DNA from: a virus | DNA: 63,047 nucleotides | Virus record (IMG/VR): IMGVR_UViG_3300033997_000050 | Coordinates: 1-63,047 of that record | Direction: 5' to 3' (one strand) | Part shown: one piece after another, positions 27,314 to 41,443 of the stretch | Numbering within the stretch: the first letter of the stretch is position 1 | How the letters are laid out: each line of letters starts with the position of its first letter | Made by a program: the position numbers and the translations under genes | The notes under the pieces: model-generated | Told to the model about the DNA's origin: nothing | What the model saw: only the letters and a program-made list of their open reading frames with translations | The model's database searches: none

Positions 27314-27534
27314 CGACGTGCGGCATTCGCGTGTTTCGTCGACACCTGGCCGCTGCCGATATCTGCGCACGCGGTTCGCGCGTGTGGTTCGAGCAGTACA
27401 AGATCGACTACATGGATTATCTGAAGAACGGCGTGCCGGTCGAAATCATGGAGGCCACTGGCGATCACTTCGCGCTGCTGGTGTCCCGGCTCGCGCGCGA
27501 AGAGGCGGCGAAGAAAGAGGTGACGAATGGGTAG
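27310..27534 (+). CDS. Small tail tip protein
   Basis: A 74-residue protein with the pattern ICARGSRVWFEQYKIDYMDYL, then KNGVPVEIMEATGD, seen in a family of small phage proteins encoded immediately before the tail hub. The start overlaps the previous stop (ATGA), and the end overlaps the hub start by 8 bases. Role: probably a tail tip chaperone or structural piece, by position. Confidence 0.78.
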   Translation: MTTCGIRVFRRHLAAADICARGSRVWFEQYKIDYMDYLKNGVPVEIMEATGDHFALLVSRLAREEAAKKEVTNG

Positions 27535-29008
27535 CAAGAAAAAAGCCACCACCGGCTATAAGTATTTCTTCGGCATCCACATGGGCATGAGCCGTGGCCC
27601 GGTCGACGAACTGATTGAGATCCGCGTTGGCGATAAGCTGGTGTGGCAGGGGAACATGGTCGACACGAGTAGCGTGAACATCAATGCGCCGGACGTGTTC
27701 GGCGGCGACAAGCGGGAAGGTGGCGTGGTCGGCACGTTCGATCTGATGATGGGTAAGCCGGACCAGGTGGCGACGCCGGGTCTCGTGTCGATGATCGGTC
27801 GCGCGCTGCCCGGCTTCCGCAAAATGTGTACCGCGTTCTTCAACGGTCAGATCGCCTCGAACTCGCCGTATCCGAAGCCGTGGAAAATGCGGATGCGCCG
27901 CACCACGAAAGGCTGGCAGAACGACGCGCCGTGGTATCCCGAGAAGGCGCGCATCATTTTGCAGGGCCAGGAGTTGAAGCCGGGCGACGAGCAGGTGGAC
28001 ACGAATATCCACGCGATGAATCCGGCGCACATCATCTACGAATGCCTGACCAACAGTGAGTGGGGGCGCGGCCTGCCGGCGTCGGCGCTGAACGTCGCGT
28101 CGTTCACCCAGGCAGCGGACACGCTCTACGACGAAGGTTTCGGCCTGTGCCTGCGCTGGACTCGCCGCGACAACCTCCAGTCCTTCATCCAGACCGTCAT
28201 CGACCACATCGGCGCGGCGATCTACGCCGACCGCGAGACCGCGACGATCACGTTGAAGTTGATCCGCTTCGACTACGAGCCGGAAAGCCTGCCGATCTAC
28301 ACCACCGACAGCGGCATCCTGGAGATCCGCGAAGCCGAGAGCAGCGCGCTCGGGCCGGCCGTGAACGAACTCGTGGTCGACTACACCGATCCAGTAACCG
28401 GCGAGACGCGCACCGTGAACCAGCAGAACCTCGCGTCGCTGCAAGCCTCGCGTGGCGTATTCAACTCGCTGAAGAAGTCGTATCCCGGCCTGCCGACGAA
28501 CGGCCTGGCGCGCCGCGTGGCGCAGCGGGATCTCCGTGTGAATGCGATGTCGCTGCGCCGCTTCAAGATCACGATGGATCGCCGCGCGTGGCGTATCGCG
28601 CCGGCCAGTGTCTTCCGTTTGAGCGACGTGGTGCGCGGCATTGCCGACGTGGTGGTGCGCGTTGGCGCGGTCGAGGACGGCACGCTGACCAACGGGACCA
28701 TCACGATCACCGCCGTGCAGGACGTGTTCTCGCTGCCCAGTTCTTCGTTCATCGGTAATGAGCCGCCGAACTGGGTCCAGCCGAACACGAAGCCTGAACT
28801 GAAGGAGCACCGCGCGTTCGAGCTTCCGTACTTCCTGATCCGTGGCGGCATGTCGCCCGCCGACTTCGACTACCTCGCGCCCGACGCCGGCTTCATCGGC
28901 ACCGTGGTCGCGAAGCCCACCGACCTCTCGCTGGCCTATGACCTCTACGTGAAGAACGGGGCGCCTGAAGAAGAGGATTATCCACCCGGCACCGCACCGA
29001 ACCCATAA
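27527..29008 (+). CDS. Tail hub/tip protein (gpJ-like central part)
   Basis: A 493-residue tail tip protein. The N-terminus (GYKYFFGIHMGMSRGPVDEL, then IRVGDKLVWQG) is characteristic of hub proteins that connect tail tube to fibres. Later parts (RGLPASALNVASF, ADRETATITLKLIRFDYE, LEIREAESSALGPAVNELVV) fit the same family. It lacks the long fibronectin-rich C-terminus of lambda gpJ. The next two genes may supply that part. Confidence 0.85.
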   Translation: MGSKKKATTGYKYFFGIHMGMSRGPVDELIEIRVGDKLVWQGNMVDTSSVNINAPDVFGGDKREGGVVGTFDLMMGKPDQVATPGLVSMIGRALPGFRKMCTAFFNGQIASNSPYPKPWKMRMRRTTKGWQNDAPWYPEKARIILQGQELKPGDEQVDTNIHAMNPAHIIYECLTNSEWGRGLPASALNVASFTQAADTLYDEGFGLCLRWTRRDNLQSFIQTVIDHIGAAIYADRETATITLKLIRFDYEPESLPIYTTDSGILEIREAESSALGPAVNELVVDYTDPVTGETRTVNQQNLASLQASRGVFNSLKKSYPGLPTNGLARRVAQRDLRVNAMSLRRFKITMDRRAWRIAPASVFRLSDVVRGIADVVVRVGAVEDGTLTNGTITITAVQDVFSLPSSSFIGNEPPNWVQPNTKPELKEHRAFELPYFLIRGGMSPADFDYLAPDAGFIGTVVAKPTDLSLAYDLYVKNGAPEEEDYPPGTAPNP

Positions 29009-30852
29009 TGGCAAATTCCGATTACACAGAAACCGGCCAGGGCAGCTTCACGCCCATGGTCATCCTCGACGCGCCGCTCGGCCGCTTCGACACCATCATC
29101 AACTACAGCAGGTTCAACTTCCCGTCGCGCGACGCAATCGAGGTCGACATGGCCGTGATGGTCAATGGCGAGATCATGTCGGTCATCGACGTGGGCGTGC
29201 TCTCGATCACCGTGGATCGCGGCTGCGCAGACACCATCCCGGCCGAACACCCGGCCGACTCGCTGGTCTGGATCTTCGACGCCGGCAGCGTAGGGACCGA
29301 CGAGATCGAATATGCCGCGACCGAGGAAGTCAGCGTCAAGGTCACACCGTACACCACGAGCGGCGCCGTTCCGCTCGAAGCCGCACCGCCGCACCTGGTC
29401 GAATTCAACTGGCGCTTCCACCGCCCATATCCGCCTGGCCGCTTCCAGATCAACGGTGAGCGCTGGGTGAACGTCGCCACACTGGACATCGACCAGCCGG
29501 CCCTGCACTTGTCCTGGGCGCATCGAGACCGAGTGCTGCAAGCCGATCACCTGGTCGGCCATGACGCGGTGTCGGTCGGTCCCGAGCCTGGCACCACGTA
29601 CAGCCTGTCGGTGATCCACCCGATCAGCGGCGCGGTGGTTCGCACGGAAGTCGGCATCGTCGGCACCGAGTTCTACTACCGCCGCGCGCAGGCGCTTCAC
29701 GACCTGGGGCAACTGACCGAGGCGCAGCGCCCGACGCTGCTGTTCACGTCAATGCGTGACGGCTTCGAGGCGTGGCAGACCTACGAGTCCGAGTTCATCC
29801 TGGCGCCGGGCAGCATCGATACGCCGCCTCTCATGGGATTCGCGCAGCAGGTGATCGAGTCGCCGTATGCGATTAACGTGGCGCGCAACGTGGCGAACTA
29901 CGACGGCAACTTCGCTGTCGCAATGGCGGCGCGCCCGGTCGACCGCATGGCCGATCTGTACCAGCTTGTCGGCAACGGCGTGCAACTGGCAGACGGCGCG
30001 CGCTTCACACCATGGGTCACGCTGGACTTCCGCATGCCGGAACTGGAGACCACGATCAATATCCGCACGTCGTCGCTGTTCAACGGCGTGCCACTGGCCG
30101 CAGCGAAGGCCGGCGACCTGATCCTGATCGACGAGGAACTGTTGCAGATCGAGACCGTCAGCCCGACGCAGATCGTTGTCCGGCGCGGCTGCTGCGATAC
30201 AGTCCCGCGCATCCACATCGCCGGCACGCGCGCGTGGCTCATCGGCGTTGCCTACTCGTTCGATTCGGTCGAGCGCACGGACGGCGAGTCGGTGCAGTAC
30301 AAGCTGCGCCCGGTCAGCTACGGCGCGCCGTACTCGCTCGACGAACTGCCGTCGAACAACGTCACGTTCTCCCGGCGCGCCGAACTGCCGTATGCCCCCG
30401 GCCGCGTGGTCGTGAATGGTCGGCCGTGGTTCGAGGAAGTGCAGGCTGTCAGCGGCGCCGCCACCGTCTTCACCTGGGTCCGTCGCAACCGCGTGGCGCA
30501 AGGCGCGGGCATCGTGGCGCACGAGGACGAGGATCGCGGCGCAGAAGCCGGCCAGGTGACGCGGCTGCAATTCTTCTACGAGACGCCGGCCGAGACGGAA
30601 GGCGGCGCTGCGGTCGAGCACGTTCTGCGCCAGCAGGACATCGCCTCGCCGACTGGCAACGCCAATCCAGCAGCCGGTATGACCTTCTCCTACACCTATG
30701 CGATGGCGCAAGCCGATGGCCTGGTCGCCGGCAACGCGCTCGGTATCTGCGGCACGGTCGTGATCTACTGCCGCATGCTCTCGGTGCGCGACGGCCTGCA
30801 ATCCTTCCAGGCGTACATCACGCCAATCCGCGTTCCCTCTTTCCCCTGCTGA
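29008..30852 (+). CDS. Modular tail protein A (two-copy module)
   Basis: A 614-residue tail protein made of two copies of a roughly 240-residue module. Each copy runs: FTP start, GVP or DAIEV strand, VDRGCADTIP or VRRGCCDTVP motif, FNWRF or FSRRAELPY followed by APGR or PPGR, then W.R.R and a final strand. Each copy ends with a DGFEAWQ or DGLQSFQ motif. The same module occurs twice more in the next gene. The proteins are probably outer tail tip or baseplate parts. The start overlaps the hub stop. Confidence 0.75.
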   Translation: MANSDYTETGQGSFTPMVILDAPLGRFDTIINYSRFNFPSRDAIEVDMAVMVNGEIMSVIDVGVLSITVDRGCADTIPAEHPADSLVWIFDAGSVGTDEIEYAATEEVSVKVTPYTTSGAVPLEAAPPHLVEFNWRFHRPYPPGRFQINGERWVNVATLDIDQPALHLSWAHRDRVLQADHLVGHDAVSVGPEPGTTYSLSVIHPISGAVVRTEVGIVGTEFYYRRAQALHDLGQLTEAQRPTLLFTSMRDGFEAWQTYESEFILAPGSIDTPPLMGFAQQVIESPYAINVARNVANYDGNFAVAMAARPVDRMADLYQLVGNGVQLADGARFTPWVTLDFRMPELETTINIRTSSLFNGVPLAAAKAGDLILIDEELLQIETVSPTQIVVRRGCCDTVPRIHIAGTRAWLIGVAYSFDSVERTDGESVQYKLRPVSYGAPYSLDELPSNNVTFSRRAELPYAPGRVVVNGRPWFEEVQAVSGAATVFTWVRRNRVAQGAGIVAHEDEDRGAEAGQVTRLQFFYETPAETEGGAAVEHVLRQQDIASPTGNANPAAGMTFSYTYAMAQADGLVAGNALGICGTVVIYCRMLSVRDGLQSFQAYITPIRVPSFPC

Positions 30853-30855
30853 CCC

Positions 30856-33300
30856 ATGGCACAAAGCGATTACAAAAACACAGGCGGTAAGGGCCAGTTC
30901 ACGCCACTGGCCGAACTCCATGATGCGGTCGACTATCTGGATCGCGTGCTGATCCTGGGCCGCGCGAACTTCCCGCGCATCGACTCGCTGCAAGTCGGCA
31001 TGGCGGTGCTGGTCAACGACGAGTTCATGCAGGTGACGGCCATCGGGCCAGGCCGCGTGACGGTCAAGCGCGGTTGCGCGGACACCGTGCCGGCCAAGCA
31101 TCCGGCGAAGTCGCTCTGCTGGTTTATCGACGTGAGCGTGGTCGGCACCGATGGCGTCGAGTACAGCGCGGGCGATACCACGTCGATCAAGTATTCCCCG
31201 TACACGCCAGGCGGCGCCCTGCACCCGAACAATACCGGCGAGATTGACGTTATCAACTTCAACTGGCGGTTCTATCGGCCGTATGCGCCGGGCCGGCTGT
31301 ACGTGAACTCGAAGCGCTGGTTCAATCGTCACCTGCTGTCGGCCGACACCGGCAGGCTGTATCTCGAATGGACGCATCGCAACCGCCTCATCCAGTCCGA
31401 CAAGCTGCTCGACCACGACGACGCGAGCGTCAGTCCCGAGACCGGCACCACCTACACCGCGCGCATCTACAACAGCGCCGGCCAACTGCGTCGCACCGAG
31501 GTCGGCATCCTGGCGCAATGGCGTGATCGCTATGGTCGCCTCGTGTATCCGGCATGGGGCTACTCCTGGCAGCAGGGTATGGCCGATCTCGGCGGCAGCG
31601 GCTTGCCGGGCGAAGACGGTGCGCTCCTTCCCGGCACGATGACGTTCCATGCGACGCGCGACGGCTTCGACTCGTGGCAAGGCTACGTTATCCCGTTCGA
31701 CCTCGATCCGCAGAGCTTCTTCCTGCGTGTCGCGCAACTCGGCCAGATCGCGGCGCAGGAGGACGACATCAACCAGTCGAGCGGCCCGTATCCACCGGAA
31801 GAGGCGGTGTTGGCTGCGTCGGTCGGCCAGATCTCCGCACAGCATGCGCGCGACGAGGACTACCAGGACGTGATCGTGGCCGACGCGATGTTCGTCGCCT
31901 CGGTGGCCGAAGGCACTGGTCAGCATACGTCGTTCTACACCGGCATGAACCGCAATCTGTTTGAGGCGCCATACGCCCACCTGCGGCGCTTGAACGTGCC
32001 GATCAGCGGCGCACACCTGGTCACGGTCGTCGCGCGCCCTGGAGACCGCCTGACGGACTCTCACACGGTCTGGTCACGCTACGACTACCCGCGTGGCCTG
32101 GGCGCTTCGTTCAACTACGAGCAGCGCATGGCTCCGCGCTTCACGCCGTGGCTCACTGTGGCGAAGCCGGTCGACTATCTGGACTCGGTGATCGAGATCG
32201 CCACGTCGTCCTTCTACGACGGTGTGCCGCTCGACGGCGTGCAGCCGGGCCAGGTCGCGATGATCGACGCCGAGGTGATCTTGATCCTGGCGCGCAGCGC
32301 GACGACGTTCACCATCGCGCGCGGCGTCTACGACACGGTGCCGGCAAAGCATGGCGTCGGCGCGCGAGTGTGGTTCTTCCAGGCGCAGGCCGGCAATGAC
32401 CCGAGCATCTATCCGTACACCGTCGACCCGAAGACCTCGCTGGTCGGATCTGCGGCCGAGGTGAAGATGATCCCCGACGTGTACGGCCCGCCGCTGGACT
32501 TGAACCAGGTGCCGACCGATCGTCTGGAAATGCTGCATCGCGTTGAGCGCCCATATCCGCCAGGCGAAGTGCTGGTGAACGGCCGGGCCTGGTACAACGG
32601 CGCGCAGATCGCGAAGGATCAGGTCACGACGATCACCTGGCGCCACCGCAACCGCGACACGCAGGGCGCGAACCCGGTCGACCACCACGCGCCGACCCGC
32701 GCGCCCGAGCCGGGCCAGAAGTACCGCCTGAAGATCACGATCATGGTGCGCGGCTCGCGGCCGACCGACCCATCGTATCCGGTCACGGTGCGCGACCAGA
32801 TCGTCGACGGCGAGACCTTCACCTACAGCTACGCGATGGCGACCACGGACGGCTACCGCGCCGCGACGCTGCTCGACGTGTGTGGCCGCGTCACCGTGGG
32901 CATGGTGCTCGAAGCGATTCGCGACGATTACGTCTCGTGGCAGAACTACGTGATCCCGCTGCTGCTGCCGGCGCCATCCTGCCCACCGGGCAAACCGCCA
33001 GGTGGCGGACAACTCCCCGGCGACAACGGTAACGGGAACGGCGACACTGGCGGCGACCCGACCAATCCGACGAACCCTGGCGGCGGCGATAACACTGGTG
33101 GCGGCTCGCCAGGCGATAATGGCGGCGGCGATAACGGCAACGGCCCGCCAGATCCTCCAGAAGTGCCGCCTGACTGGCCCGATCCAATCGAGCCGCCTGA
33201 GCCTGATCCTGACGATCCGAATCCGGCACTGGCCGCACACTGGGACTTGAACTGGGACCGCCACTGGGACGCATACACGAAAGACAATCAAGGGGAATAA
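30856..33300 (+). CDS. Modular tail protein B (two-copy module, Gly/Pro/Asn-rich end)
   Basis: An 814-residue paralogue of the preceding protein. Module copies begin near residues 14 (KGQFTPLAEL) and 418 (RFTPWLTVAK), each with the VKRGCADTVPAKH or IARGVYDTVPAKH motif and the PYAPGR or PYPPGE strand. A 180-residue insertion between the copies is unique to this protein. Residues about 710-780 are low complexity (GGG, GDNGNGNGD, NPTNPGGGD), followed by a Pro/Asp stretch and a tryptophan-rich end (HWDLNWDRHWD). The end may be a flexible attachment for fibres. Confidence 0.75.
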   Translation: MAQSDYKNTGGKGQFTPLAELHDAVDYLDRVLILGRANFPRIDSLQVGMAVLVNDEFMQVTAIGPGRVTVKRGCADTVPAKHPAKSLCWFIDVSVVGTDGVEYSAGDTTSIKYSPYTPGGALHPNNTGEIDVINFNWRFYRPYAPGRLYVNSKRWFNRHLLSADTGRLYLEWTHRNRLIQSDKLLDHDDASVSPETGTTYTARIYNSAGQLRRTEVGILAQWRDRYGRLVYPAWGYSWQQGMADLGGSGLPGEDGALLPGTMTFHATRDGFDSWQGYVIPFDLDPQSFFLRVAQLGQIAAQEDDINQSSGPYPPEEAVLAASVGQISAQHARDEDYQDVIVADAMFVASVAEGTGQHTSFYTGMNRNLFEAPYAHLRRLNVPISGAHLVTVVARPGDRLTDSHTVWSRYDYPRGLGASFNYEQRMAPRFTPWLTVAKPVDYLDSVIEIATSSFYDGVPLDGVQPGQVAMIDAEVILILARSATTFTIARGVYDTVPAKHGVGARVWFFQAQAGNDPSIYPYTVDPKTSLVGSAAEVKMIPDVYGPPLDLNQVPTDRLEMLHRVERPYPPGEVLVNGRAWYNGAQIAKDQVTTITWRHRNRDTQGANPVDHHAPTRAPEPGQKYRLKITIMVRGSRPTDPSYPVTVRDQIVDGETFTYSYAMATTDGYRAATLLDVCGRVTVGMVLEAIRDDYVSWQNYVIPLLLPAPSCPPGKPPGGGQLPGDNGNGNGDTGGDPTNPTNPGGGDNTGGGSPGDNGGGDNGNGPPDPPEVPPDWPDPIEPPEPDPDDPNPALAAHWDLNWDRHWDAYTKDNQGE

Positions 33301-33303
33301 GCA

Positions 33304-34041
33304 ATGCCAAGACAAGAGACTTCGAGGTTCCGTTTTTCACAGGGCTGGTTGCGCGGCGAGGACTGGTGGGGCGATCCGGTCTCGGCCAACTTCCTGCTGC
33401 TCGACGTGATGCTGGGAACCGTGATCGAGTCGATGACTGAAAGCGCGCCACCGCCGAACGGCAACGTGGTGGTCGGCGACATGTTCATCGTGGCCGACAA
33501 CGCGACCGGCGCATGGGAAGGCCGCGAAGGTCAGATCGCCGCACTGACCTCGACCGGCTGGCGCTTCGTCGTGCCGGTCGACGGCGTGCGTGCGCGGCTG
33601 AATAGCCCGCCTGGCTGGATCTGGTTCAACGGCGCGACCTGGCTGCGTGAAGACCAGAACAGCGACACGCCGACACCGATCCTCGGCACCCGGTACGACA
33701 TCGCCATGTCGGTCGGCTACGAGGCCGAGGCGGGCGAGACGCTGCTGGTCTTCACGATCCCTGAACCGATGACGCTGCCGGCCACCGCAGCCGGATCGTG
33801 GGGCCGCACGGTGACGCCGCCGAACGGGATCATCCGGCTCGCGATCCGAAGGAACGGAAGTGACGTTGGTACAATCACATTCGCCGCGAATAGCTCGCGC
33901 GCCATCTTCACCGTGCAGGGTGATAAGCCGTTCGCCACTGGCGACCTCCTGACCATCCACATGCCGGACAATCCGCCTGCCGGGTTCGCGAATTATGGCG
34001 CCACGCTGCGGCTCATTCTCGCAACGAACGGAGGTAACTAA
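33304..34041 (+). CDS. DUF2793 tail protein
   Basis: A 245-residue protein with the DUF2793 pattern: NVVVGDMFIVADNATGAWEG, then QIAALTSTGWRFVVP, then WIWFNGATW. DUF2793 proteins occur next to receptor-binding genes of proteobacterial phages. The C-terminal half is a separate beta-rich unit with a glycine-rich NGIIRLAIRRNGSDVG segment. The last base of its stop is shared with the next start. Confidence 0.82.
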   Translation: MPRQETSRFRFSQGWLRGEDWWGDPVSANFLLLDVMLGTVIESMTESAPPPNGNVVVGDMFIVADNATGAWEGREGQIAALTSTGWRFVVPVDGVRARLNSPPGWIWFNGATWLREDQNSDTPTPILGTRYDIAMSVGYEAEAGETLLVFTIPEPMTLPATAAGSWGRTVTPPNGIIRLAIRRNGSDVGTITFAANSSRAIFTVQGDKPFATGDLLTIHMPDNPPAGFANYGATLRLILATNGGN

Positions 34042-35027
34042 TGCTGCACATTGACGGCTTCGAGGAATTCGCGAACGACCCGGCGCCGAACGCTCAAATG
34101 GTGCGCGCCGGCTACGAGGTGTTCGGCCAGATGGCTATCGTCGGCGGGCGCCTGGGTGCTCACGGCGTGGCCGGCCGCAACGCGACGATGGTGCGCAAGA
34201 TGCCATGGACGACGAACACCATGAGCACCGGCTTCGCGCACATGTTCGACACGCGCGGATCGGCCTGCTGGTTGAAGGTGGGCGACACGCAGATCAATCT
34301 GTGGCTGCACCCGGACACCGGCCTGCCGCACCTGAACGACAAGCCTGGTGGCGCGCTGCCGGTGTCTAGCCGCTGGTACTACTACGAGTTGGAACTGGAT
34401 CGCGCGGCGGCGCGCGTCACGCTTTCGATCAACAACCGGATCGACATGACCTACGATGTCGAGGGTGACTTGAGCACCGAGGAAGTCGAGGTCGGGATCG
34501 GCTACATTCTGCCGCACATCTACCGGCCAGATGCGGACCCGGTCCCGGTCGACAACGCCACGAAGACCTTCGACGACTTCTATATCCGCGACACCTCGCG
34601 CTTCGGTCCTATCGTGGTCTCGACGCGCTTCCCGACGACCGACGAACAGGTCGAGTGGTTCAAGGCTGCGGTGGCTGGCTCGCACGCCGAGTCGCTGGCT
34701 CTGCGCCCGCCGAAGCCGCTGGACAACTACGTGGCCGCGAACGTGATCGGCGCCGACGACCGCTTCACTTCCGCTCACGAACTGGTCAACGACAATCCGG
34801 TGATCGCGACCGGCGTGGTGGTGCTGGCCCGCAAAGCGCCGACCCTGGCCGCGCGCCTGGGCGTGTTCATTGGCGGCGGCGTCGGCGACACCGTAGAGCC
34901 GCGCGCCATGGATACCGATGTCGAGACCGACTGGAAGACGCAATACCTCTTCTTCGAGAATCAGGGGCCGGATGCGCCGGCAGCAGTCAAAGACGCCGAG
35001 TTCGGCATTTACGTCGCAGCACCATAA
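34041..35027 (+). CDS. Fibre-like paralogue 1
   Basis: A 328-residue protein, first of four tandem paralogues. It opens MLHIDGFEEF, has a jelly-roll-like middle (SRWYYYELELDRAAARVTLS, then a DDFYIRD acidic loop) and ends with a conserved module: VVSTRFPTTDEQVEW, NPVIATGVVVLARKAPT, LARLGVFIG. It is probably a receptor-binding or tail-surface protein. No enzymatic motif was seen. Confidence 0.72.
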   Translation: MLHIDGFEEFANDPAPNAQMVRAGYEVFGQMAIVGGRLGAHGVAGRNATMVRKMPWTTNTMSTGFAHMFDTRGSACWLKVGDTQINLWLHPDTGLPHLNDKPGGALPVSSRWYYYELELDRAAARVTLSINNRIDMTYDVEGDLSTEEVEVGIGYILPHIYRPDADPVPVDNATKTFDDFYIRDTSRFGPIVVSTRFPTTDEQVEWFKAAVAGSHAESLALRPPKPLDNYVAANVIGADDRFTSAHELVNDNPVIATGVVVLARKAPTLAARLGVFIGGGVGDTVEPRAMDTDVETDWKTQYLFFENQGPDAPAAVKDAEFGIYVAAP

Positions 35028-35037
35028 GGAAAATCAC

Positions 35038-36918
35038 ATGAGCATTAAACACATCGACGGCTTCGACCAGTTCCAGGGTCAAACGTCAGCAGCGCTTCTT
35101 GCCTCGCTCGCCGCAGCAGGGTATGTCGTGTCCTCGGGTCTCGCCATGGCCGAAGGTCGGCACCCTTCTTCGCACGCGCTGGAATTGCAGGTGTCGGCAG
35201 GCACGGCAGGCTCATCCTGGTCGAGCCGCACGAACACGGTCAAGTTCGACTTGAACGGCGTGGCCGCGAACACGGCTGGCCGCTGGGTCGCAGTCGGGAA
35301 CAACGGGCAGGCCACCACGTCGACGGACGGCATCCAGTGGGCGCCGCTGGTCATCGGCACCACGCAGACCTTGCGCGATATCGCCTGCAACGGCAACACG
35401 TATATCGCGGTCGGCGACAACGGCACCATCATGCGCTCGACCAACGGCCAGGCGTGGACTCAGCAGGCCGCGCCAGTAGCCGGCGTCGCATTGAGGGCTG
35501 TCGCGTTCGGCGGCGGCAAATGGCTCGCAGTTGGTCAGGCCGGCAGCGTTGGCGCAATTTTCGTGTCCGAGGATGACGGCGCGACCTGGGCCAATATCAC
35601 CGCCAATGCCGGCACGCGGCCGAACGTGTCCGTCGCATTCGGCAATGCGCGCTGGACCGTGGGCGGGATGGCGGGCCAGATCCTCACGGCCGGCGCCAAC
35701 CTGGCGTTCGTTGAGACCACCATGCCTGTCGCCGGAATGGTCGCAGGTGTCGCCTACACCAACGGTTCGTGGTTCGCGCTGTGCAGCGGGATCTATCGCA
35801 GCGTCGACGACGGCGCAAACTGGGTGCTGGTCTCGGCCAATCCGAACGGCGGCTCGGCGCTGCGCTGCATCGCGGCTTCGGGTTCGCGCCTGATCGTCGG
35901 CGGCGACCTGGGCGGCGTCTTCTACAGCGACGACGGCATCACCTGGACGCGTGCAGCATTCGCTGGTGCGAACAGTTCCTCGGTGCTCGACATTGCGCTC
36001 TCGCTGGGCGCGCAGGCGGGATGGTGCGCGGTCGGTACGGTGCCGACAAATAATCCGTCCGGTAACGCGATCATCTATATGTCGGTCGCGCCGCCGACAA
36101 AGATCTCTCGTACGTTCGTCTCGACCGCGAACCGCGTGGTCATCGGATTCGCGCATCGGGCTACCGCGCGCGGCCGGATCTTCAGCATTGCGAACCTGTT
36201 CAACATGGACTGGCCCTCGGGCATCCAGATCCTCGACGAGATCGGCGCCAGCGTCCCGATTCGCAATGCCTGGTACTACTACGAGATCGTCATCGACAAG
36301 ACCGCCAACACGATCAGCCTGCACGTCAACGACACCGATGACCTGGTGGTGCCGCTGCCTGCGGCCGGCGCGAACATGACCTCGTTCGTGATGTCCTGGG
36401 AAGCCGAGAACGGGGCCGTGGCGCGCATCGACGACCTGTACCTGCTCGACTCCGATACGACCGGCGGCTCGACCCAGGTGAACCGCCTGAAGCCAATCCG
36501 CGTGCCGATCCGCAAGCCGACCGAGGACGTTGCGATTGCGTGGCTCGGCTCGCAGCCTGGCCCGCACTGGCCGCTGGTCGGGCTTCTGCCGCCGTCACCC
36601 GAAACGTTCATCCGTTCGTCCACTTCCGGCGACCAGGATCTCTTCTCTTCCGGCGACACGCTGCCCGAGGGCGCCGGCACCGAGGACATGCCGATTATCG
36701 CGGTCGGCCTGGTGGCGCTCGCGCAGAAAAGCGATCTCGACAATCGCCAGCTTGGCCTGGTGGTCGGCGCGCAGGGAAATCAGAAGGAGGTCGTCGACAC
36801 GCTGCTCAACGTGACACCGGAGTATAGTTTAGCCATCTTCGAGACCGCGCCTGGCGATGTACCATGGACTGCGGAAAACATCGAGACCACACCGTTCGGC
36901 GTCGCCGTTCGCCCATAA
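35038..36918 (+). CDS. Fibre-like paralogue 2 with inserted beta-propeller repeats
   Basis: A 626-residue member of the four-gene array. The start (MSIKHIDGFDQFQGQ) and the C-terminal module (RVPIRKPTEDVAIAWLG, IIAVGLVALAQKSDLDNRQL) match the neighbours. Between them lies about 300 residues of BNR/sialidase-like repeats with the pattern WVAVGNNG...TSTDGIQW, YIAVGDNGTIMRSTNGQAW, WLAVGQAG...SEDDGATW, which should fold as a beta-propeller. The insertion probably changes or adds glycan binding. ATG at 35038 is chosen because it matches the paralogues and follows AAGGAAAA. Confidence 0.78.
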   Translation: MSIKHIDGFDQFQGQTSAALLASLAAAGYVVSSGLAMAEGRHPSSHALELQVSAGTAGSSWSSRTNTVKFDLNGVAANTAGRWVAVGNNGQATTSTDGIQWAPLVIGTTQTLRDIACNGNTYIAVGDNGTIMRSTNGQAWTQQAAPVAGVALRAVAFGGGKWLAVGQAGSVGAIFVSEDDGATWANITANAGTRPNVSVAFGNARWTVGGMAGQILTAGANLAFVETTMPVAGMVAGVAYTNGSWFALCSGIYRSVDDGANWVLVSANPNGGSALRCIAASGSRLIVGGDLGGVFYSDDGITWTRAAFAGANSSSVLDIALSLGAQAGWCAVGTVPTNNPSGNAIIYMSVAPPTKISRTFVSTANRVVIGFAHRATARGRIFSIANLFNMDWPSGIQILDEIGASVPIRNAWYYYEIVIDKTANTISLHVNDTDDLVVPLPAAGANMTSFVMSWEAENGAVARIDDLYLLDSDTTGGSTQVNRLKPIRVPIRKPTEDVAIAWLGSQPGPHWPLVGLLPPSPETFIRSSTSGDQDLFSSGDTLPEGAGTEDMPIIAVGLVALAQKSDLDNRQLGLVVGAQGNQKEVVDTLLNVTPEYSLAIFETAPGDVPWTAENIETTPFGVAVRP

Positions 36919-36934
36919 TCAGAAAGGACATACC

Positions 36935-37945
36935 ATGCTTCGCCACATTGACGGCTTCGACCACTACGGCGCCACCACCGAGATCGCAGCTAACATCACC
37001 TCCATCCTCGAAGCGGCCGGCTACACGGTCAACAACGCCACCAACACGACGTTCAACATTGCGGCCGGCCAGGATCAAGGTTCGCTCGGGTTGAAGATGA
37101 CCATCCCGGCGAACTCCGCTACGCCGCCATCCTTCAGCCGCTCGTTCACCACCGTCGAAGATTACGTGTGCTTCGGCTTCTCCTTCCGTGGCACGCAGGC
37201 TCGTCAGCGCTTCGCCCGTATTGCCGGCGTGCTGGATCTTGACTGGGATGCCACCACCGGCAAGATGAAGGTCGGCGAGGTGCTGGGCCAGGACGTGATT
37301 ATCCTGAACGCCTTCTGGTCCATCGAGATCGAGATCGACAAGGTGAACAACGAATTCCGTGCTTGGGCGAACGACACGCTTCAGCTTACCGTTCCGCTGC
37401 CCGGCGCCGTGGGCAACACGCACACGATCGTGTGGGGCATGAACCAGCAGACGCCGACCGCCAGCGTGGTCGAGATCGACGATCTGTACATCATCGACAG
37501 CGCGGGCGGCAAGAACAACTCGCGCCTCGGGCCGCTGAACATCATCACGCGCCGGCCGACGACCGATGTATTGGCCGAGTGGACGGCAGTTGGCAGCACG
37601 GCAGCGCATAACGTGATCTTGTCCCAGCAGTCGCCGGCAGCGGCCAATGCGCCATACGTCCAGGCCAACGTCGAGGGTCGCACCGACCGCTTCACGTCGA
37701 ACGTGGTGCTGCCGAACTCGAACGAGATTGTCGGCGTGGCGCTCACCGCGTACGCGCGCAAGGGCGACCTGGACAATCGCAACCTCGGTCTCCAGATCGG
37801 CACGCAGGCCGGCGTCACTGAAACGCAGATTCCGCTGAACACGGCCTACGGGTTCAAGCAGGCCATCTTCGAGACCGCACCGAATGGCGAGACCTGGGAT
37901 CAGAACCGCGTTGAAACATCGTCGATGGCGATCATTGCTCGTTGA
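36935..37945 (+). CDS. Fibre-like paralogue 3
   Basis: A 336-residue paralogue with start MLRHIDGFDHYG. The middle contains FWSIEIEIDKVNNEFRAWAN and EIDDLYIIDSAGG, and the C-terminal module reads IITRRPTTDVLAEWTAVG, NEIVGVALTAYARKGDLDNR, AIFETAPNGETWD. AGAAAGGA precedes the start. Likely tail-surface or receptor-binding role, by context. Confidence 0.72.
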   Translation: MLRHIDGFDHYGATTEIAANITSILEAAGYTVNNATNTTFNIAAGQDQGSLGLKMTIPANSATPPSFSRSFTTVEDYVCFGFSFRGTQARQRFARIAGVLDLDWDATTGKMKVGEVLGQDVIILNAFWSIEIEIDKVNNEFRAWANDTLQLTVPLPGAVGNTHTIVWGMNQQTPTASVVEIDDLYIIDSAGGKNNSRLGPLNIITRRPTTDVLAEWTAVGSTAAHNVILSQQSPAAANAPYVQANVEGRTDRFTSNVVLPNSNEIVGVALTAYARKGDLDNRNLGLQIGTQAGVTETQIPLNTAYGFKQAIFETAPNGETWDQNRVETSSMAIIAR

Positions 37946-37952
37946 GGAAAAT

Positions 37953-39119
37953 ATGACCATTCTGCGCACTGAATCATGGGGCGCCTTCCCACGCTATAAC
38001 GGCGACGAGGCGAACAACGCGACCGGAAATGCAGCACGCGCGGCACACGCTGCGAACGTGCGCGCATACGGCTACGACTTCTCTGCACCGACGGCCAACA
38101 ACATCGGCTGGCTGGTCAAGGCTGACGCGGTATCGCCCGAGCGCTGGGCCTACACGTTTTCTTCGAGCGGAAAGACTGGCGAAGCGGCCGGGTTCCGCAT
38201 GAAAATGCCGACTGTGCCAAGCGTGTTGATCTTCGGATTCTCGTTGTTCGTGCCAAGCTCTTACACACCGAACACTACACAAAGCCCTGAGTATCCGATG
38301 ATGCAGGTTCTATCGTTTGCCGCAAGTAGCGCGTACACCGCGATACCTGGTCGCGCTGAAGCGGCAGGTGAATTGTTCCGCATTGACTGGGGATTGCGCG
38401 TGCGGCGCGGTATCGCGGCTGTTGAAAACGCGAAGGCCATGGTTCCCGGCAAGCTGTCGTACATCGAATGCCGGATCTCGGCGAGTGAGGTGCGTGTCTG
38501 GATGGACGGCACGCTGGTTCATCAGTCGACTAGGGCTGTGTCGCGCGAGAGTATTGCGATCATGTGTACGGCTTGGAATGGCTTTACTGTCGGCGGTACG
38601 ATGGAAGGCGCGCCGGCCATGTGGCAAGTCTCAAATATGTACTTCCTTTCCGAAGATGCTGTCGAACCAAATGTGCGCTTGGGGCCGGCCACGAGGGTTA
38701 TCGCGAACCGGCCTAGCGCCGATGTTGACGTCGACTTCTCGCGACCGAGCGGTACGCTGTCAAACGCCTCGGTTGTCGGTGCTGATTTTCAGACAACGAA
38801 TACCGCGTCTCTCACTGTGCGAAATATCGGCGATTCGGACGTGTATTCTGCGTCGGCAAGAGACGCGGTGACTGGAGCCGGTCGAGTGTACGCCGTGTCA
38901 GTGAAAATGCTGGCGTCGAACTTGGAAACAGATCCGCACGCATTCAAGCCGCTGATTGTCTCGGGAGCCGCCGAAGCCGCCGCGCCGAACGTAAGTCTCC
39001 CCGGATTGTCGGGCAACACACTAGTGGCCGGCATCGCAACCGTGGACCCGATTACTGGAGTCGAATGGACGACATCGGCTGCGGCAGACGTGGATTTCGG
39101 CGCGCGCCTGGTTTCATAA
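37953..39119 (+). CDS. Fibre-like paralogue 4 (most diverged)
   Basis: A 388-residue protein. The N-terminus (MTILRTESWGAFPRYNGDEA) has lost the HIDGF motif, but the C-terminal half keeps the module: LGPATRVIANRPSADVDVDF, ALTVRNIGDSDV-like strands and a final GIATVDPITGVEW. The DNA composition is visibly less GC-biased than in its neighbours, which suggests a more recent exchange. GAGGAAAAT precedes the start. Confidence 0.68.
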   Translation: MTILRTESWGAFPRYNGDEANNATGNAARAAHAANVRAYGYDFSAPTANNIGWLVKADAVSPERWAYTFSSSGKTGEAAGFRMKMPTVPSVLIFGFSLFVPSSYTPNTTQSPEYPMMQVLSFAASSAYTAIPGRAEAAGELFRIDWGLRVRRGIAAVENAKAMVPGKLSYIECRISASEVRVWMDGTLVHQSTRAVSRESIAIMCTAWNGFTVGGTMEGAPAMWQVSNMYFLSEDAVEPNVRLGPATRVIANRPSADVDVDFSRPSGTLSNASVVGADFQTTNTASLTVRNIGDSDVYSASARDAVTGAGRVYAVSVKMLASNLETDPHAFKPLIVSGAAEAAAPNVSLPGLSGNTLVAGIATVDPITGVEWTTSAAADVDFGARLVS

Positions 39120-39128
39120 GGTTTAGCG

Positions 39129-41018
39129 ATGGCTGACATTGCGCGACTATCTTCCGTCCTGGTTGAAACGCTGATTGAAGCACCGCCCGATCCGGTAGTG
39201 CTTCCTTCAGTTTTTTCGGTCACAACCGAAACCCTCATCCAGCTTTACATTCCTCCGGCTGAAGTTCACAGCTTGCTCACGGAAACGCTAATTACGCTTC
39301 CGGTCGCATCGTTGACGAACATCATCACGGAAACCCTTATAGAGTCTGGTGCGAACGAAGGCGTGGTCGCGCATATCGTGCCGGGTTTTTCGCAGCAAGC
39401 GTTGCAGAAGGCGCCACCCAAGCCGCATCCGTCAATGGTGTGGAGTCAGAACACCGTGGTCAACTTCTCGCAAATCGTGGCGCAGCGACGAACCCGCGTT
39501 CCGATAAAGAGCATGATCGAAATTCCTGTTCTGGCGCAGAAGGTGGCTCGACGCAGGGAGTCAGTACCGCCGCGTAGCGACACGACCGTGGTTCAGTTGG
39601 TGGAACAGGTGGCGCAGTCTCGTGTACGCGCTTACGCGCCTGTTTCAGCGGTCTACGTGCAGCAGCTTCGCCAACAGGCCGCTCGCAAGGTATCACGCAT
39701 ACCGGCACCATCCGTTCGCTCGCCGATCAACGTCGGTAAGATGGTGCAGATGGTGGCGTTATCGCGCAAGACTCGCGTGATCTTGACGCCGGCCGACGTG
39801 GCACAGCTTCACCAGCAGATCGCTATCGCTGCGGCGCGGCCGGCGCCGATCAGTCCAATGCGGGCCGCACAGTTCATCCAGCAGATCGCAGTAGTGCGGT
39901 TGGTGGCACCGCCAGGCATCGACGTGCGCGCTGCGCAGTTCGTCCAGGAGATCGCAACGCATCGCGACATCGAGGCGTGGTCATACATCGGTATGGAACA
40001 CGTCGCGCAGCTTATGCAACAGGTGGCCGTTGCGAGCACGCGGCCGACGCCGATCAGCGCGACGCGGGCAACGCAGTTCGTGCATCAGGTGGCGCAACAC
40101 CGCGTGACGTATCCGCCTGCGTTCATCTTGGGCTGGAACGCGGTCAAGTTCGTGCAGCAGGTGGCCGCTCATCGCTTCATGCTTTTACCGGACGACATGC
40201 GCAGCATGATCTCGGTGAAGACGATGAGCGTGCAATACGGCATGAAGCGCGACACGGTTCCACCAATCGAAGTGATTGACCCATCGGTCGGTCGGCACGT
40301 TGCCCAGCTTATGCAGCGTGTCGCCATGCGCAGGCAGACCACGCCGCCCACCGAGATCACGCAGTCCAGGTTCGTGACCGCGCTGCTCTCGACGACGGTG
40401 CTCGGCGACACGACCTTCCCGCCGCCACCGCCGAAGCCACCAGTGCCGCCGATTGTGACGGCCAGCGCGCTCGTAGAGCAGGTGGTGATCGGAGACGCGG
40501 ACGACTGGATCGCGGTATCGCAGGTGCGCGCGTCGGCGGTAGTGCAGTATGTCGCGCTGACCGACGACTATCCGTTCCTCGACCCGGCGATACCGCAGTC
40601 CGAGATCTCGGTGTTCTCGCTGGCGCAGCCGGTGGCCCTGGTTGACGAGTTCCCCGCGCCGAGCGACATGCTCAGTGAGGTGGACGTGATCGAACTGGTG
40701 TCGAGCGTCGCGCTGGCGGATAGCGACTTCGACGACCCTCGCGCGCCGCATAGCGAGATCACCGTGGCGCAGGCGTTCGAGTTGACTGTTCTCGGCGACA
40801 CCGAGTTCCCGGCCGGCACGCAGCCGCAATCCGATCTGACACTGTTTGCCATTGTCGAGAAGGTTGCAGTCGGAGACCCGACCATGGCCGGCGAAATGCC
40901 TGGTTCGGAATTGCGGCTTACCTCGGTGGTCGAGTTCTATGCGGTCCACGATCCTACATTGAAGGGAATACCGCTGCGGCAGGGGCCGCGACCAGTAATA
41001 TCGGTCACGATCAGTTGA
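39129..41018 (+). CDS. Repeat-built tail protein (about 25 short repeats in three classes)
   Basis: A 629-residue protein composed almost wholly of 18-28-residue repeats. Class 1 (residues 1-80) has VETLIEAP or TETLITLP four times. Class 2 (about 95-415) has AQFVQQVA, AQLMQQVA or QFVHQVA followed by a basic spacer and PP. Class 3 (about 430-620) has SALVEQVVIGD, SAVVQYVALTD or IVEKVAVGD followed by an acidic spacer. All three share one hydrophobic-alternating core, as in a beta-solenoid or helical bundle. No family was recognised. It ends the tail operon just before a terminator, so a tail fibre or virion surface role is inferred. Confidence 0.8.
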   Translation: MADIARLSSVLVETLIEAPPDPVVLPSVFSVTTETLIQLYIPPAEVHSLLTETLITLPVASLTNIITETLIESGANEGVVAHIVPGFSQQALQKAPPKPHPSMVWSQNTVVNFSQIVAQRRTRVPIKSMIEIPVLAQKVARRRESVPPRSDTTVVQLVEQVAQSRVRAYAPVSAVYVQQLRQQAARKVSRIPAPSVRSPINVGKMVQMVALSRKTRVILTPADVAQLHQQIAIAAARPAPISPMRAAQFIQQIAVVRLVAPPGIDVRAAQFVQEIATHRDIEAWSYIGMEHVAQLMQQVAVASTRPTPISATRATQFVHQVAQHRVTYPPAFILGWNAVKFVQQVAAHRFMLLPDDMRSMISVKTMSVQYGMKRDTVPPIEVIDPSVGRHVAQLMQRVAMRRQTTPPTEITQSRFVTALLSTTVLGDTTFPPPPPKPPVPPIVTASALVEQVVIGDADDWIAVSQVRASAVVQYVALTDDYPFLDPAIPQSEISVFSLAQPVALVDEFPAPSDMLSEVDVIELVSSVALADSDFDDPRAPHSEITVAQAFELTVLGDTEFPAGTQPQSDLTLFAIVEKVAVGDPTMAGEMPGSELRLTSVVEFYAVHDPTLKGIPLRQGPRPVISVTIS

Positions 41019-41025
41019 TAAAAAG

Positions 41026-41059
41026 GCCGGGGGTATAATTGCTCCCGGCTTTTTCTTTT
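41026..41059 (+). terminator. Rho-independent terminator of the tail operon
   Basis: An 8-bp stem (GCCGGGGG against CTCCCGGC, one GU pair) with the loop TATAATTG is followed by TTTTTCTTTT. The loop itself reads as a -10 box, so a promoter for the lysis genes may overlap, but no well-spaced -35 was found. Confidence 0.85.
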
Positions 41060-41083: not shown

Positions 41084-41443
41084 ATGAGTGATCCAAATGA
41101 CCTTCCGCCAGGAGGTAGCCGAGTCGAGCGCCGAGGGCGTGTCGATTTAACGCTGAACATTCCGACACTGATTATGATCGCAACGCTAATCGTAACCACG
41201 TCCGCCACTGGTGTCGGAATGTATTACAACCTCGACAAGCGGCAGATGATGCTGGAAATTGCAATGACATCGCTGGTCCAGCGCGTCGACAAGCTCGAAG
41301 GCAACCAGGTCTCGGCCAACAACAACCTGCGCACTGAGTTAAAGACCGACATCGCAGAACTGAAGGGCATGTTGAACCGCGTGATCTTCGCACCGCCGAC
41401 AACCTCGCAGCGTCAACTCAAGGAATGGAGTAAAGACCAATGA
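41084..41443 (+). CDS. Holin candidate, one transmembrane helix plus coiled coil
   Basis: A 119-residue protein with a charged N-terminus, a single strong membrane helix (about 27-47, TLIMIATLIVTTSATGVGMY) and a following coiled coil (SLVQRVDKLEGNQVSANNNL). It is the first gene of the lysis cassette, overlapping the endolysin start by 4 bases. This fits single-helix holins or pinholin-like proteins. It could instead be an accessory membrane protein if the tail-anchored endolysin works otherwise. Confidence 0.68.
   Translation: MSDPNDLPPGGSRVERRGRVDLTLNIPTLIMIATLIVTTSATGVGMYYNLDKRQMMLEIAMTSLVQRVDKLEGNQVSANNNLRTELKTDIAELKGMLNRVIFAPPTTSQRQLKEWSKDQ

What the first reader, a model, noticed from the sequence alone, without database searches (positions are those of the whole stretch)
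39129..41018. A 629-residue protein built of about 25 repeats in three related classes
Aligning the protein on itself shows TETLI-type repeats, then QFVQQVA-type repeats with basic spacers, then VEQVVIGD-type repeats with acidic spacers. All keep the same hydrophobic alternation and a length of 18-28 residues. The charge switch from basic to acidic halfway suggests a fibre or solenoid with two differently charged faces or ends. It closes the tail operon after four fibre paralogues. I recognise no family.
Basis: seen in the sequence. Interest (0 to 1): 0.72.

Follow-up and report, generated by a model that had tools for sequence, protein, structure and literature searches.

The report
Repeat-string protein of Chi-like phage tails
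This phage gene encodes a protein made almost wholly of about 26 short beta-strand repeats; it is the distant counterpart of gp36 of the flagellum-hunting Salmonella phage Chi, and because the same repeat also sits in the tail-tip protein, it is probably part of the long tail fibre whose make-up is still unresolved.

Summary
Window 39129-41018 encodes 629 residues with about 26 copies of a 12-residue strand motif (consensus V-x-Q-[VL]-x-[EQ]-x-[VA]-[VAL]-Q-x-[DRA]) spaced 23.6 +/- 2.8 residues, far above shuffled sequence. Three classes are real and occur in the same order across the family. The charge pattern is acidic-basic-acidic rather than one switch, and the basic middle is not conserved. 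It is not an orphan. It matches PHROG 7226 (unknown function) and is the positional homologue of phage Chi gp36 (YSD1_35), found in Casjensviridae next to lectin-type fibre genes. New here: the same motif, in two or three copies at the same spacing, lies at one conserved linker of the tail-tip protein (Chi gp30 = YSD1_29). Elsewhere, strand strings of similar design are fused to other tail proteins, once to a DUF2460 domain. AlphaFold gives one strand per repeat but very low confidence, so no fold is established. Best reading: an extended multivalent strand string that is a backbone or scaffold of the tail-tip fibre. Main counter-evidence: virion mass spectrometry of AchV4 did not list its homologue. 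Binding to the neighbouring fibre proteins, and the fibre-length match, are inference.

The parts
39129..41018 (+). repeat-string protein gene, 629 aa, about 26 strand repeats; homologue of Chi gp36 / JS26 gp49 (PHROG 7226)
39147..39350 (+). class 1 repeats (x-x-x-x-x-x-E-[TV]-L-I type), residues 7-74, acidic zone
39378..40334 (+). class 2 repeats (QFVQQVA type), residues 84-402, basic zone
40374..40952 (+). class 3 repeats (VEQVVIGD type), residues 416-608, acidic zone
40410..40460 (+). proline-rich linker TTFPPPPPKPPVPPIVT, residues 428-444, between the first and second class 3 repeats
40953..41015 (+). C-terminal tail (PTLKGIPLRQGPRPVISVTIS), residues 609-629, similar across the family
41021..41054 (+). 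rho-independent terminator hairpin that ends the tail operon
   Evidence: not listed by the simple consensus scan
30856..33300 (+). third part of the tail-tip (J-like) protein, homologous to Chi gp30 = YSD1_29
31729..31929 (+). linker of the tail-tip protein with three copies of the same strand motif (residues 292-358; VAQLGQIAAQED, AASVGQISAQHA, VASVAEGTGQHT), spacing 28 and 27
33304..34041 (+). DUF2793 tail fibre protein (PHROG 7049), homologue of Chi gp31
34041..35027 (+). fibre paralogue 1, PHROG 2448
35038..36918 (+). fibre paralogue 2, PHROG 2448 plus weakly supported beta-propeller-like (BNR/YCF48) part; start codon inferred
36935..37945 (+). fibre paralogue 3, PHROG 2448; predicted lectin-type jelly roll plus C-terminal beta domain (pLDDT 92); start codon inferred
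37953..39119 (+). fibre paralogue 4, PHROG 10924; start codon inferred
41084..41443 (+). next gene after the terminator: Rz-like spanin match (lysis module); start codon inferred

Best explanation
The protein is a component of the tail-tip fibre apparatus of a Casjensviridae-like siphophage. It is a long, mostly extended string of about 26 beta-strand motifs joined by proline-rich linkers. Shown: the repeats; homology to Chi gp36; the fixed place after the fibre genes; and the same motif in two or three copies, at the same spacing, in one linker of the tail-tip protein. Inferred: each strand is a docking or stacking unit, so the protein works as a multivalent backbone or scaffold on which the lectin-type fibre proteins and/or the tail-tip trimer are strung, forming all or part of the long flexible tail fibre used to catch the host (flagellum in Chi and JS26). 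Step estimates: belongs to the tail-tip fibre apparatus 0.8; acts as an extended multivalent string rather than one globular or solenoid domain 0.55; binds the neighbouring fibre paralogues strand by strand 0.35.
For: Homologues sit at the same place, after PHROG 2448/10924 fibre genes and before lysis genes, in Chi, JS26, XAP3 and AchV4; the other phage records fetched at this locus show it before lysis genes, and IMG/VR relatives carry it after the fibre genes. Identity is only about 20% to distant members, yet length is narrow (578-724 aa with one outlier of 879) and C-terminal spacing is nearly fixed at 25, which argues for a structural role. The same motif recurs in the tail-tip protein: in all 23 non-redundant homologues whose linker could be placed by alignment the best-scoring motif pair fell in or at the linker, 18 of them with p<0.05 against shuffles, whereas the duplicated middle copies that lack the linker show nothing. 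Strand strings of similar design occur C-terminal to a glycine-rich domain next to PHROG 2448 and 6368 genes in Brevundimonas phages, and between a glycine-rich domain and a DUF2460 domain in phage Polewnik, again next to PHROG 2448 and 6368 genes. I take DUF2460 to be the gene-transfer-agent type distal-tail family (from memory). Short two- or three-repeat strings, seen by eye in DSS3P8, V13 and XM05 next to PHROG 6368 genes, are too few to form a solenoid alone. The fibre paralogue models as a lectin-like jelly roll with a phage receptor-binding domain (TM4 gp23, 9n6a) among the top structural matches. Chi has a single ~220 nm tail fibre whose protein composition has not been proven (PMC9266447, PMC10399903); Chi gp30 has a deposited chain, gp31 and gp36 have none. 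Hydropathy is too high for a simple disordered protein.
Against: LC-MS/MS of AchV4 virions listed the fibre proteins 0024-0026 but not 0027 or 0028, the repeat protein (PMC7996906), although 0028 has about 22 usable tryptic peptides. AchV4's tail-tip protein lacks the strand linker. AlphaFold2 gives no confident structure, and no complex could be predicted here. The lectin fibres also occur without strings: phiCbK, pCB2051-A, Lucius. From memory, immunogold in YSD1 assigned the long fibre to YSD1_29 (= Chi gp30), not to the repeat protein; that paper is not held. The Brevundimonas and Polewnik strings are hardly or not matched by the Casjensviridae matrix, so their kinship is a resemblance of design, not shown homology. 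The link between fibre paralogues and strings was partly found by searching for those paralogues.
Confidence: 0.45

Rival explanations
1. Self-stacking fibre: the repeats pack on each other, within a chain or within a homotrimer, as rungs of a beta-solenoid or triple beta-structure, giving a rod of its own that needs no fibre paralogues.
For: AlphaFold2 places one strand of 10-12 residues per repeat at a regular 22-24 residue period in residues 130-322; conserved Gln at motif positions 3 and 10 and Glu/Gln at 6 would suit stacked ladders; the weak top structural hits include putative adhesins (not significant).
Against: Mean pLDDT 34 and no significant structural match. Linker lengths vary from 5 to 17 residues and some are polyproline. 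The motif occurs in only two or three copies in the tail-tip linker, too few for a solenoid by itself.
Confidence: 0.25
2. Assembly factor not kept in the virion: a multivalent chaperone that gathers fibre subunits or the tail-tip protein during assembly and is then lost.
For: Not listed among AchV4 virion proteins while neighbouring fibre proteins were (PMC7996906); last gene of the tail operon; low predicted order.
Against: Only one data set. In JS26, 10 hypothetical proteins of the structural cluster were confirmed in virions (PMC8754663), but the list that would say whether gp49 is one of them could not be read. A strand string of similar design is fused to a DUF2460 domain in Polewnik, which should keep it in the particle.
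Confidence: 0.2
3. Receptor-contact protein in its own right: an adhesive string that lies along the flagellum or cell surface, each repeat making a weak contact, with the class and charge zones tuned to host surface charge.
For: Chi and JS26 are flagellum-dependent; repeated weak contacts would suit a fibre that wraps a rotating filament; the basic middle varies between lineages.
Against: No direct evidence; the same motif in an internal tail-tip linker argues for an internal structural use of the motif.
Confidence: 0.1

Closest known systems
Salmonella phage Chi gp36 / YSD1_35 (PHROG 7226, function unknown)
   Same: Same gene position, similar length (709 vs 629 aa), same three-class strand-repeat architecture, similar C-terminal tail.
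   Different: About 20% identity over the whole length; the middle zone is not basic in Chi.
Serratia phage JS26 gp49
   Same: Same position and repeats; basic middle and acidic C-terminal part as in the window. JS26 is flagellum-dependent (PMC8754663).
   Different: About 21% identity; 707 aa; five further fibre-region genes between the DUF2793 fibre and the string instead of four.
Strand linker of the tail-tip protein, Chi gp30 / YSD1_29 (deposited chain 8vjh)
   Same: Same 12-residue motif at a similar spacing, mostly 24-31 residues.
   Different: Only two or three copies inside a larger structured protein.
C-terminal strand strings of Brevundimonas phages Delta, Poludnitsa and Polewnik
   Same: Serial strand motifs of similar design (VSxxxxEVL, VxKxxxYAVL) next to PHROG 2448/6368 fibre genes.
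   Different: Fused to a glycine-rich domain and, in Polewnik, to DUF2460; the motif sequence differs and homology is not shown.
Phage fibre repeats of phiCbK gp101 type (LTDTPSSYxG...GKxLRVN)
   Same: Repeat-rich tail protein next to a PHROG 2448 gene.
   Different: A different repeat unit; no strand-string motif.

Membership tests
PHROG 7226 / Chi gp36 family | Profile match | tested here: met
   E 2.6e-10, best stretch over profile positions 308-651 of 667; Chi gp36 itself matches the whole profile.
PHROG 7226 / Chi gp36 family | Gene position after PHROG 2448/10924 fibre genes and before the lysis genes | tested here: met
PHROG 7226 / Chi gp36 family | About 25 strand repeats with a 22-26 residue period in three ordered classes | tested here: met
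PHROG 7226 / Chi gp36 family | Function of the family (unknown) | not testable with these tools
   No experiment on Chi gp36 / YSD1_35 found in the held library.
Virion structural protein / tail fibre component | Present in purified virions | tested here: inconclusive
   Not listed among AchV4 virion proteins; JS26 list in an unread supplement.
Virion structural protein / tail fibre component | Shares sequence elements with a proven tail-tip protein | tested here: met
   Same motif in the Chi gp30-type linker; a similar-looking string fused to DUF2460 in Polewnik.
Beta-solenoid fibre | Confident solenoid model or match to a solved solenoid | tested here: inconclusive
   Regular strands but pLDDT 34 and no significant match.
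Intrinsically disordered protein | Low hydropathy relative to net charge | tested here: not met
   Whole protein and all three zones lie on the folded side of the charge-hydropathy line; low pLDDT alone does not decide.

The most novel reading that the evidence does not exclude
The long tail fibre of Chi-like phages is not a conventional folded homotrimer but a strung fibre: an extended strand-string protein (gp36 family) serves as backbone and perhaps ruler, each repeat holding one lectin-type fibre subunit, and it joins the tail tip through the same motif in gp30. A fully extended chain would be about 234 nm for Chi (709 aa x 0.33 nm) against an observed fibre of about 220 nm, and 208 nm for the window protein.
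Probability: 0.2. Interest if true: 0.8.

Novelty: new variant of a known kind. Interest (0 to 1): 0.55.

Why it matters
Chi has been the model of phages that climb flagella for decades, yet what its 220 nm fibre is made of is not proven, and the cryo-EM work on YSD1 that could be read solved the capsid and tail tube, not the fibre. The survey in PMC3556154 gives about 1 nm of fibre per 12-20 residues, so no single protein encoded in Chi's fibre region would reach 220 nm as a conventional fibre (gp30: 65-108 nm; gp36: 35-59 nm). A conserved string protein that shares its repeat with the tail-tip protein gives a concrete candidate, testable by virion proteomics, a knockout or a complex prediction.

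Tried and rejected
Single-sequence search of IMG/VR with the window protein found nothing, and the 12-sequence alignment had no conserved stretch to search with; relatives were reached through the neighbouring DUF2793 fibre. Pfam, NCBIfam and PDB sequence searches with the repeat protein were empty. A consensus-string query against phage genomes gave Brevundimonas phages, and with an added VSK..YAV half also Polewnik and Strzyga. Rejected: phiCbK gp101, XM05_67, DSS3P8_053 and RcKickapoo_59 as relatives (their repeats are other fibre repeats); a universal link between lectin fibres and strings (phiCbK, Lucius and pCB2051-A have the fibre without a string). The charge switch was rejected as a family-wide feature. 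CHI_31 as the homologue of YSD1_29, as PMC10399903 seems to imply, was rejected: annotation coordinates show YSD1_29 = Chi gp30.

Full report
OBSERVATION. The ORF 39129-41018 (629 aa, ATG to TGA) is real, and its homologues occupy the same slot in many phage genomes. Its repetitiveness is far beyond chance: 82 pairs of 11-residue windows score >=30 against 1.55 on average in shuffles, and an iterated score matrix finds 20.9 repeats per family member against 2.4 in shuffled sequence. The repeat is a 12-residue strand motif, V-x-Q-[VL]-[VR]-[EQ]-[QL]-[VA]-[VAL]-Q-x-[DAR], followed by a proline-containing linker; 26 copies fit the window protein with a mean spacing of 23.6 residues. The charge pattern is acidic, basic, acidic; the acidic C-terminal part is common, the basic middle is not.

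FAMILY. The protein matches PHROG 7226 (E 2.6e-10), whose full profile is matched by gp36 of Salmonella phage Chi. Weak direct hits to JS26, SAP012 and XAP3 led to 156 phage records when JS26 gp49 was used as query. The members whose records were opened are Casjensviridae-type siphophages of about 58-64 kb, and all annotate the protein as hypothetical. In Chi, JS26, XAP3, AchV4 and IMG/VR relatives the order is tail-tip protein, DUF2793 fibre, three to five fibre paralogues, repeat protein, lysis genes. The window is itself a whole IMG/VR record of 63,047 bp. A terminator hairpin ends the operon at 41021-41054.

THE SAME MOTIF IN THE TAIL TIP. Scanning window ORFs on the + strand with the matrix put the repeat protein first by a wide margin; the next was the 814-aa protein at 30856-33300, the third part of the tail-tip protein. 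It has three motifs at residues 292, 320 and 347. In homologues the motif recurs at this one linker. A pair statistic against shuffles gave p<0.05 at the linker for 18 of the 23 non-redundant proteins whose linker could be placed by alignment; the best pair lay at the linker in all 23. The duplicated middle copies, which have no such linker, gave nothing. This protein is Chi gp30, which has a deposited chain (8vjh), and by coordinates is YSD1_29. From memory, not held here, YSD1_29 was placed on the long fibre by immunogold labelling.

STRINGS ELSEWHERE. A consensus-string query hit Brevundimonas phages. In Delta and Poludnitsa, genes of the fibre families (PHROG 2448 and 6368 in Poludnitsa) are followed by a glycine-rich domain protein with a C-terminal strand string. 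In Polewnik the string lies between a glycine-rich domain and a DUF2460 domain, next to PHROG 2448 and 6368 genes. Short strings also end proteins adjacent to PHROG 6368 genes in a roseophage podovirus (V13), DSS3P8 and XM05. These strings are alike in design, but the Casjensviridae matrix matches them hardly or not at all, so common descent is not shown. The fibres also occur without strings in phiCbK, Lucius and pCB2051-A; pCB2051-A, a Casjensviridae member, has no string gene in the stretch read, and its tail-tip protein is short (823 aa).

STRUCTURE. AlphaFold2 on 24 homologues gave one strand per repeat in residues 130-322 but mean pLDDT 34; the model has no significant structural match. 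The fold is therefore unknown. Hydropathy is on the folded side of the charge-hydropathy line, which fits strands that need a partner. By contrast fibre paralogue 36935-37945 is predicted with pLDDT 92 as a lectin-like jelly roll plus a C-terminal beta domain; lectins, glucanases and the receptor-binding domain of mycobacteriophage TM4 gp23 are among its matches.

MECHANISM. The best-supported reading is a multivalent strand string in the tail-tip fibre apparatus. What is shown is the repeat, the family, the gene order and the shared motif in the tail tip. That it is extended, that it carries fibre proteins and that it sets fibre length are inference. The length comparison (709 aa x 0.33 nm = 234 nm against about 220 nm in Chi, PMC9266447) is suggestive arithmetic only. 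The strongest counter-evidence is that AchV4 proteomics detected three fibre-region proteins but not the repeat protein, although it has enough tryptic peptides; AchV4 has an unusually short member and no strand linker in its tail-tip protein. JS26 proteomics confirmed 21 virion proteins, 10 of them hypothetical proteins in the structural cluster, but the list is in a supplement that could not be read.

LITERATURE. Searches found no description of these repeats or of Chi gp36. [quoted passage not shown] Papers outside the held library were not searched, so novelty is stated with that limit.

VERDICT. The protein is a divergent member of a known but uncharacterised family, not an orphan. The new element is the link between its repeat and the tail-tip protein, which turns a curiosity into a testable candidate for a fibre whose composition is open.

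Noticed in passing
27527-33300: The tail-tip protein that is one 1296-aa ORF in Chi (gp30) is split into three ORFs here, with its middle part duplicated (29008 and 30856 both match the same stretch of PHROG 1101); the closest IMG/VR relatives likewise have separate ~600-aa and ~810-aa copies.
   Followed up: partly
34918-36918: Fibre paralogue 2 carries an N-terminal part with weak BNR/Asp-box and YCF48-like beta-propeller matches (DUF6242 E 2.7e-5, below Pfam's cut-off) ahead of the shared fibre domains.
   Followed up: no
33000-33300 (end of ORF 30856-33300): The C-terminus of the tail-tip protein is a low-complexity Pro/Gly/Asp-rich stretch; Chi gp30 and JC01 have a similar Pro/Asp/Glu-rich end.
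   Followed up: no
L091 (YSD1) and L004 (Chi): YSD1 gene numbers in this region are Chi numbers minus one, so YSD1_29 is Chi gp30, not CHI_31 as a later paper (PMC10399903) seems to assume.
   Followed up: yes
L092 (Loktanella phage pCB2051-A): A Casjensviridae phage whose fetched tail region has no string gene, a short tail-tip protein of 823 aa and a single PHROG 6368-type fibre.
   Followed up: partly
L082:9802-11073: An IMG/VR contig encodes a protein ending in about four or five repeats of another strand-string type (VAxFxDDxxF), suggesting that C-terminal strand strings are more widespread in phage receptor-binding genes.
   Followed up: no
L016 and L035 (IMG/VR 2974570458, same length as Salmonella phage 35): The repeat gene is broken into two overlapping ORFs, a frameshift or sequencing error.
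   Followed up: no
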